Assembly (NCBI RefSeq): GCF_900186965.1
Contig: NZ_LT906457.1
Span: forward strand, 2,444,501 to 2,508,500
Length of the DNA stretch: 64,000 bases
Direction of reading: 5' to 3'
From: Legionella spiritensis
Lineage (GTDB): Bacteria > Pseudomonadota > Gammaproteobacteria > Legionellales > Legionellaceae
Shown here: positions 15,827 to 16,475 of the stretch, in pieces
Layout: the number at the start of each line of letters is the position of its first letter
Position numbering within the stretch: position 1 is the stretch's first letter
Program-made: the position numbers and the translations under genes
Notes under the pieces: generated by a model
Told to the model about the DNA's origin: nothing
Database searches by the model: none
The model's input: only the letters and a program-made list of their open reading frames with translations

Positions 15827-16475
15827 ATCACTCGGTTTTTCGATCACGCTATGCTTCATAGCCAAAAACGTGAGTTCCACGTCGTTTTTGATACCTAATT
15901 TATCAAACATGCGATATCGGTAACCATTGATAGTCTTGGTACTCAAAAATAAACGCTCGGCAATATCATGAACCGTCATGCCGCTGGTAATCATAAACAT
16001 CACTTGCATTTCGCGTTCGGACAAACGATCAAACGGCGATTCCTCAACGGCCTCCAGACTGTTAATAGCCATTTTTTGAGCAATCTCGGCACTAAGGTAT
16101 TTCTCACCCTTCGCCACCTTACGGATAGCCGCCGCCATTTCCTGTACGCCGGATTCCTTGGTCAAATACCCCATGGCTCCTAACTGCAGAATACGACTGG
16201 GCAACGGCTCGGCACAAATCGCCGTAACAGCGATGATCCGGATTTGCGGATTTGATTTTTTTAAACGACGAGTGACTTCCCAGCCATCAATACCAGGCAT
16301 TTTCATATCAAGAAGAACAACATCGGGTTTATGGGATTTAACCAAAGCTAAAGCCTGCTCTCCGCTTTCCGCTTTCCGCTTCGGCAACCACATCCATATC
16401 CGGCAAATCTTCCAGTAATCGTCGAATACCCATTCTTACCAAGGCATGGTCATCAACAATTAGTACTTTTATCAA
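15824..16475 (-). pseudogene. letA: letA (GacA/UvrY-type response regulator), frameshifted by a 7-bp repeat
   Basis: LetA is the receiver-HTH regulator that, with the kinase LetS, activates the small RNAs RsmY/RsmZ and so relieves CsrA, driving the transmissive, virulent phase of Legionella. Translation starts at TTG 16475, with AAGGAG six bases upstream, giving 'MIKVLIVDDHALVRMG' with the acidic pair D8/D9. At 16361-16381 three copies of TCCGCTT (plus strand) shift the frame, and translation ends after 45 residues. Removing one copy restores a 214-residue protein with Asp54 (VVLLDMKMPGIDG), the signalling Lys (YLTKESG) and a LuxR-type HTH (LSEREMQVMFM, TVHDIAERLFLS, TINGYRYRMFDKL). Everything else is intact, so the lesion is recent, switchable or a sequencing error. 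An internal ATG at 16393 could yield a 189-residue form lacking the first strand of the receiver. Confidence 0.9.
16361..16381. repeat. Triple heptamer repeat (TCCGCTT x3) inside letA
   Basis: Three perfect, adjacent copies of TCCGCTT at 16361-16367, 16368-16374 and 16375-16381. Two copies keep the letA frame (reading A-E-A-E-S-G-E-Q); three put the downstream part out of frame. A heptamer is not a multiple of three, so slippage by one unit toggles the gene. This has the structure of a contingency (phase-variation) tract, though three units is short for one. Confidence 0.9.

What the first reader, a model, noticed from the sequence alone, without database searches (positions are those of the whole stretch)
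16361..16381. letA is switched off by a third copy of a 7-bp repeat: mutation or phase switch
Direct reading: TCCGCTT occurs three times in tandem inside the receiver-coding part of letA. With two copies the frame from TTG 16475 to the stop at 15824 is a 214-residue LetA with every key residue (D8, D9, D54, Lys, HTH). With three, translation ends after 45 residues. LetA governs the transmissive, virulent phase, and loss of GacA-type regulators is a known adaptive or phase-variation event in pseudomonads. Either this isolate is a letA mutant, the tract slips between states, or the assembly is wrong.
Basis: partly seen in the sequence, partly recalled or inferred. Interest (0 to 1): 0.87.

Follow-up and report, generated by a model that had tools for sequence, protein, structure and literature searches.

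The report
Legionella letA broken by heptamer duplication
In this Legionella genome the master regulator gene letA is cut in two by a seven-base sequence present three times in a row; it looks like a recent, ordinary loss mutation rather than a built-in genetic switch.

Summary
The tract is real: TCCGCTT three times at 16361-16381, the only perfect tandem of three or more copies (units of 5-30 bp) in the window and in 160 kb of adjoining own sequence. It splits the gene for a LetA/GacA-type response regulator, in a Legionella near L. erythra, into a 45-residue start piece and an out-of-frame remainder. No second full-length copy was found in the genome. The partner kinase LetS is whole, and two Rsm-like small RNA candidates are seen in 7 and 10 of 10 genus genomes. 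Over 224 kb, letA is the only one of 153 compared genes with a clear frame change. The downstream piece shows no clear acceleration, so the break looks recent. The tract is not conserved: of 69 distinct relatives' sites 0 have three copies and 1 has two, which argues against an evolved phase-variation locus. Of 143 family genomes I count 129 with a full-length frame; one other has letA interrupted by a repeated element. Best reading: recent slippage duplication inactivating letA, possibly favoured in culture. Assembly error is unlikely but not excluded; switching is untested.

The parts
16361..16381 (-). Three perfect head-to-tail copies of TCCGCTT (AAGCGGA on the coding strand) inside the receiver-coding part of letA; the reading frame is broken here
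16338..16475 (-). 5' piece of letA: TTG start to premature stop, 45 residues; holds the DD acidic pocket and the first part of the receiver
   Evidence: Response_reg positions 1-33; NF007018 positions 1-38, 39 bits
15824..16393 (-). 3' piece of letA as an open frame of 189 aa (first ATG 16393): rest of the receiver with the phospho-acceptor Asp, and the LuxR/GerE-type HTH
   Evidence: Response_reg 27-111, GerE; NF007018 positions 33-210, 233 bits, below the 280-bit cut-off
16482..16487 (-). AAGGAG, ribosome-binding-site-like, six bases before TTG 16475
   Evidence: read in the minus-strand print; role inferred
13697..15565 (-). uvrC, open over its length, the usual downstream neighbour of gacA/uvrY-type genes (neighbour rule recalled)
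16561..17379 (-). Biopterin-dependent aromatic amino acid hydroxylase gene upstream of letA

Best explanation
This is a recent loss-of-function frameshift in letA, the response regulator of the LetA/LetS-RsmYZ-CsrA cascade. The repeat unit sits on the codons of a conserved Ala-Glu-Ser-Gly-Glu stretch, and in this species those codons happen to give alike neighbouring heptamers. The likely mechanism is replication slippage that duplicated a 7-bp unit, which is not a multiple of three. Translation from the normal TTG start stops inside the receiver, and no phosphorylatable LetA is made (inferred). With LetA gone, LetS has no normal output, the Rsm RNAs are not induced, CsrA stays active, and the cell is expected to remain in the replicative programme (known for L. 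pneumophila; inferred here). The allele may have been favoured on laboratory medium. Shown here: tract, frame break, no second full-length letA, LetS intact, no other clear frame change nearby. Inferred: mechanism of duplication, absence of product, phenotype, selection in culture.
For: Tract and split frame. Each piece alone misses the curated UvrY/SirA/GacA cut-off of 280 bits (233 and 39 bits), while intact L. erythra LetA just passes it (281.4). No second full-length copy in the genome (seven other matches, 25-31% identity, partial). In the family 129 of 143 genomes, own included in the 143, show a full-length frame by my count of the listing. Of 153 genes compared with G006 over 224 kb, 4 are flagged for a frame change: 3 are tandem paralogues and 1 is letA. 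The 3' piece has mean dN 0.080 to ten outgroups, against 0.071-0.075 for four sister genomes. LetS passes NF045901 at 1745 bits, cut-off 1650. Two Rsm-like small RNA candidates lie near LetA-box-like sites and have matches in 7 of 10 and 10 of 10 genus genomes. letA is independently interrupted in G137. Literature: nonfunctional letA or letS alleles arose in L. pneumophila lerC mutants, in the colony type that took over on passage (Feldheim 2018, as told in PMC12308824, passage); a laboratory Philadelphia-1 stock carries LetA L68R, effect not stated (PMC10537758, passages).
Against: No raw reads and no second isolate of this species were seen, so an assembly or consensus error is not excluded. 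No phenotype or expression data; culture history unknown. An internal start at ATG 16393 could give a receiver-damaged protein with an intact HTH, so 'null' is not proven. The frame test sees only breaks with both sides matching: 12 of 153 genes lacked one piece covering 85%, letA and 11 others; most look like end or start differences or shadow frames, but two (q_90, q_264) were left unresolved. Own dN is slightly the highest of the five compared. The RsmY match is weak (24.7 bits, gathering score 57) and the whole-genome search did not list that place. One-mismatch LetA boxes are only mildly above control (20 against 13), the only exact box (L118) has no Rsm-like candidate beside it, and only 15 of 20 box sites were examined.
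Confidence: 0.77

Rival explanations
1. The tract is a phase-variation (contingency) locus: slippage between copy numbers turns LetA on and off reversibly, pre-adapting the population for replicative or transmissive life.
For: The unit is not a multiple of three and lies early in the gene. A reversible 661-bp duplication that frameshifts the gacS homologue of Pseudomonas tolaasii is a precedent in the same pathway (PMC10928948, passage). Slippage in a regulator gene, mga, is called phase variation by its authors (PMC10330708, abstract).
Against: Only three short units. Of 69 distinct relatives' sites 0 have three copies and 1 (L043) has two. No other such tract in 224 kb of own DNA. The review PMC11868660 (passages) requires switching both ways without selection at a detectable rate and declines to class even mga as evolved phase variation for want of this; no such data exist here.
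Confidence: 0.07
2. Assembly or consensus error: the isolate's letA is intact and the extra length was introduced in sequencing or assembly.
For: Short tandem arrays can be miscounted; letA is nearly always intact in the family; no reads were available.
Against: Letter-perfect 7-bp unit; single-contig genome scored 100% complete; letA is the only one of 153 genes over 224 kb with a clear frame change. The sequencing method is unknown; that long-read errors are mostly single-base homopolymer errors is recalled.
Confidence: 0.12
3. A working N-terminally truncated LetA is made from ATG 16393 (189 aa): its HTH would act without phosphorylation control, so the allele changes rather than abolishes function.
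For: The frame is open with an ATG start and keeps GerE and most of the receiver. A similar restart was considered for truncated LerC alleles in PMC12308824 (passages).
Against: Only a weak ribosome-binding-like sequence before that ATG (read by eye). The ATG lies 55 bases before the end of the first piece, so coupled re-initiation is unlikely (inference). The start of the receiver with the acidic pocket is missing, so a fold defect is likely (inference). Among the letA rows printed, the only others without the receiver start are fragments at contig ends (L090, L112).
Confidence: 0.04

Closest known systems
Spontaneous gacA/gacS mutants of pseudomonads (e.g. Pseudomonas protegens CHA0, PMC8262913)
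   Same: Changes in the same GacA/LetA-type regulator arising spontaneously, there during root passage (passages)
   Different: Those are substitutions, one nonsense and one upstream change in evolving lines; here a 7-bp tandem duplication in one Legionella assembly of unknown history
pheN/rtpA (gacS) 661-bp reversible duplication of Pseudomonas tolaasii (PMC10928948, passage)
   Same: A duplication frameshifts a gene of the same two-component system
   Different: There the sensor gene, 661 bp and reported to reverse; here the regulator gene, 7 bp, reversal not examined
letA/letS nonfunctional alleles in L. pneumophila lerC mutants (Feldheim 2018, as told in PMC12308824)
   Same: Loss of LetA/LetS function rising during growth on solid medium
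   Different: Engineered lerC background in another species; the lesions are not described in the passage read
mga poly-C slippage in group A Streptococcus (PMC10330708, abstract)
   Same: Slippage in a repeat disables a virulence regulator during culture
   Different: Homopolymer of eight bases, reversion seen in mice; here three 7-bp units
letA of G137 (another genus of the family), interrupted by a repeated element
   Same: letA independently broken in its receiver part
   Different: Insert of about 250 bp, of which the 243 bp searched have 14 matches in that genome; not a tandem duplication

Membership tests
UvrY/SirA/GacA/LetA response regulators | One frame passing the curated NF007018 cut-off (280 bits) | tested here: not met
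   Pieces score 233 and 39 bits; intact L. erythra LetA scores 281.4
UvrY/SirA/GacA/LetA response regulators | Complete receiver domain with acidic pocket and phospho-acceptor Asp in one protein | tested here: not met
   Response_reg split over two frames, positions 1-33 and 27-111
UvrY/SirA/GacA/LetA response regulators | C-terminal LuxR/GerE HTH | tested here: met
   GerE 67.2 bits in the 189-aa frame
UvrY/SirA/GacA/LetA response regulators | uvrC downstream and a LetS/BarA partner in the genome (recalled as usual context) | tested here: met
   uvrC at 13697-15565; LetS NF045901 1745 bits, cut-off 1650
SSR-mediated phase variation locus (definition of PMC11868660) | Switching in both directions seen without selection at a detectable rate | not testable with these tools
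   No reads or cultures; definition seen in passages
SSR-mediated phase variation locus (definition of PMC11868660) | Repeat number beyond chance appearance of short tracts | tested here: inconclusive
   Unit 7 x3 in 0 of 20 shuffles, three copies of another unit of 5-12 bp in 2 of 20; a single recent duplication explains three copies as well
SSR-mediated phase variation locus (definition of PMC11868660) | Tract kept in related genomes (supporting feature, my own criterion) | tested here: not met
   Of 69 distinct relatives' sites 0 have three copies, 1 has two
Loss-of-function frameshift allele | Gene without a second full-length copy, split by a repeat unit not divisible by three, intact in relatives | tested here: met
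Loss-of-function frameshift allele | Confirmed in raw reads and lacking activity | not testable with these tools
   No reads, no assay

The most novel reading that the evidence does not exclude
letA in this species is a low-rate genetic switch: codon choice over a conserved receiver motif makes a slippage-prone heptamer array, so a fraction of cells becomes LetA-off and stays replicative, and slippage can bring LetA-on cells back. It would be a counterpart, in the regulator gene, of the Pseudomonas tolaasii gacS switch.
Probability: 0.06. Interest if true: 0.8.

Novelty: new member of a known kind. Interest (0 to 1): 0.33.

Why it matters
If the lesion is real, this reference genome describes a LetA-defective isolate. 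Conclusions on life cycle, motility or virulence drawn from that stock would then be about a regulatory mutant, not the species. It is also one of two letA breaks on unbroken contigs found in a 143-genome family survey, in line with the repeated loss of GacA-type regulators elsewhere.

Tried and rejected
Rejected as best reading: evolved contingency locus. Rejected: a generally error-ridden assembly (4 of 153 genes flagged, 3 of them tandem paralogues, 1 letA; the reverse test of own ORFs on G006 flagged 2 of 148). One search looked at the 12 of 153 without one piece covering 85%: letA, and 11 with shorter matches; most look like start or end differences or shadow frames, and q_90 and q_264 were left unresolved. 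Rejected: long-decayed pseudogene (no second lesion seen; dN not clearly raised, although own is slightly the highest of five). Rejected: a spare full-length letA.

Led nowhere: the Rfam RsmY search of the own genome found nothing over the cut-off and rings, below the cut-off, in 13 of 14 controls; dS in the 3' piece is saturated; the paper search with a species name that was only my guess gave 0 papers. No report of this allele showed in the listings (8 papers; 25 of 47; 7; 10 of 11); only titles and abstract starts were seen there, save the papers cited. lerC of this genome was not examined, for want of a reference sequence.

Family survey, rows left out of the 129 of 143 count: own G000; G137 (interrupted); G071, G084, G135 (cut at contig ends or split over contigs); G114, G160 (only a C-terminal stretch near a contig start); G019, G056, G057, G061, G065 (only weaker regulator matches); G027, G139 (0.5-Mb genomes, no match at 1e-30). 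The 129 was counted by eye. Five rows with a stop inside (G024, G012, G138, G013, G053) were counted as full-length on the inference that the stop lies before the TTG start; not checked one by one.

Full report
What is there. The window is positions 2444501-2508500 of a single-contig genome of 3,348,070 bases. Its nearest named letA relative in the genome collection is Legionella erythra (92% identity over residues 7-189, which may leave out the window's own record); the species itself was not identified. At 16361-16381 TCCGCTT stands three times head to tail (one search gives 16357-16381, period 7, 3.6 copies). On the minus strand, which is coding, the frame from TTG 16475 stops at 16338 after 45 residues, while the rest of the gene is open in another frame from ATG 16393 to 15824.

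Is it chance? It is the only perfect tandem of three or more copies with units of 5-30 bp in the window. Exact unit-7 arrays of three copies appear in 0 of 20 dinucleotide shuffles; 2 of the 20 held a three-copy array of some other unit of 5-12 bp. None of three or more copies (unit 5-30) appears in 160 kb of adjoining own DNA or in 160 kb of relative G006, and two of other unit lengths appear in 291 kb of four relatives. So the array is hardly background, but one slippage event beside an accidental near-repeat would be enough to make it.

What is broken. The two pieces correspond to a UvrY/SirA/GacA-type regulator: piece one matches NF007018 positions 1-38 (39 bits), piece two positions 33-210 (233 bits), cut-off 280; intact L. 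erythra LetA just passes with 281.4. Pfam splits the receiver likewise, and the HTH is whole. No second full-length letA was found in the genome (the seven other matches are 25-31% identical and partial). uvrC follows, open over its length.

Is it the assembly? ORFs of G006 were compared with 224 kb of own sequence: 153 matched at 60% identity or more, 4 were flagged for a frame change, 3 of those are tandem paralogues and 1 is letA. This test needs both sides of a break to match. Twelve of the 153 had no single piece covering 85%: letA and 11 others, most of them start or end differences or shadow frames, two unresolved. In the window alone, the same kind of test with four relatives (55, 55, 11 and 15 matched ORFs) flagged only letA each time. 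A lone, letter-perfect 7-bp unit in an otherwise clean sequence favours a real mutation. Reads would decide.

How old? The 3' piece has a mean dN to ten outgroups of 0.080, against 0.071, 0.075, 0.073 and 0.072 for four sister genomes: slightly the highest, no clear acceleration. No second lesion was seen. LetS is whole (918 aa; NF045901 1745 bits, cut-off 1650; HATPase, HisKA, receiver and Hpt) and holds the only Hpt match in the genome. Two short GGA-rich transcript candidates near LetA-box-like sites look like Rsm RNAs. One (L129, minus strand) has an RsmY match of 24.7 bits, below Rfam's 57, and ends in a strong hairpin followed by a short T run. The other lies beside what I take for gyrB (name recalled). 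The first has matches in 7 of 10 genus genomes, of which 4 cover nearly all of it, 2 most of it and 1 only its end; the second in 10 of 10, mostly over its central 85-110 bases. The link to LetA is inferred: one-mismatch boxes exceed the control only mildly (20 against 13), the only exact box (L118) has no such candidate beside it, 15 of 20 box sites were examined, and the whole-genome RsmY search did not list the L129 place.

Is the tract a kept feature? Among 69 distinct relatives' sites, 0 have three copies and 1 (L043, a Tatlockia MAG) has a two-copy unit-7 tandem. The protein motif is much alike but the codons vary. This is what an accident of codon choice looks like, not a maintained contingency tract. 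The phase-variation review PMC11868660 (passages) asks for switching both ways without selection; nothing here speaks to that.

How unusual? Against 143 family genomes (own included), LetA is found at 1e-30 in 134, of which I count 129 full-length; the other five are own, G137, and three genomes where the gene meets contig ends. Nine have no match at that level (seven of these nine looked at again). In G137 letA is split near residue 51 by an insert of about 250 bp; the 243 bp of it that were searched have 14 matches in that genome, 11 over the whole length at 99-100%: an independent break by a repeated element.

How it most likely works. Slippage added a unit; translation from the normal start ends within the receiver; the cascade LetS-LetA-RsmY/Z-CsrA loses its middle. 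In L. pneumophila LetA/S mediates differentiation to the transmissive form (PMC13227487, abstract start in the listing) and supports survival in water (PMC5928044, abstract). PMC7811196 (passage) words the direction the other way round (transmissive to replicative) but also reports activation of virulence traits. Loss can be favoured on plates: in lerC mutants the colony type that took over carried nonfunctional letA or letS (Feldheim 2018, as told in PMC12308824); that same paper found letA and letS unmutated in its own host-passaged lines. A laboratory Philadelphia-1 stock carries a letA missense change (PMC10537758; effect not stated in the passages read). In Pseudomonas protegens, gacA mutations made up about 20% of missense changes in one root-passage study (PMC8262913), and a reversible duplication frameshifts gacS in P. 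tolaasii (PMC10928948). That this isolate's allele arose in culture is my inference.

Verdict. Observation confirmed; loss mutation favoured; switch possible but unsupported; assembly error not excluded. Interest is modest: a new example of a known kind of event, useful mainly as a warning about this reference genome.

Noticed in passing
L211 (G137:C1:1178740-1178982): A repeated element interrupts letA in another Legionellaceae genome; the 243 bp searched have 14 matches in that genome, 11 full-length at 99-100%.
   Followed up: partly
L129:1205-1325 (-) and L119:1340-1470 (-): Two GGA-rich small RNA candidates near LetA-box-like sites with matches in 7 and 10 of 10 genus genomes; possibly the species' Rsm RNAs.
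   Followed up: partly
L112, before position 64 (Legionella tunisiensis contig NZ_CALJ01000309.1): Just before the letA fragment stands a sequence that I recall as loxP, as in old paired-end linkers; probably adapter left in the public contig.
   Followed up: no
G105:C4:9249-9833: A second LetA-like match (78% identity, one stop inside) beside a full-length letA in the same genome, which is listed with 5% contamination.
   Followed up: no
window 11863-12435 and about 10311-10730: Haem-NO-binding (HNOB) gene upstream of a frame of 806 aa holding a receiver-like stretch: perhaps an NO-sensing hybrid kinase pair.
   Followed up: no
window 53908-54197: Tandem array of 30/60-bp units, perhaps a repeat protein.
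   Followed up: no
G000:C1 near 2516886: Two own ORFs match G006 in two frames, hinting at a frame change or repeat in the relative.
   Followed up: no
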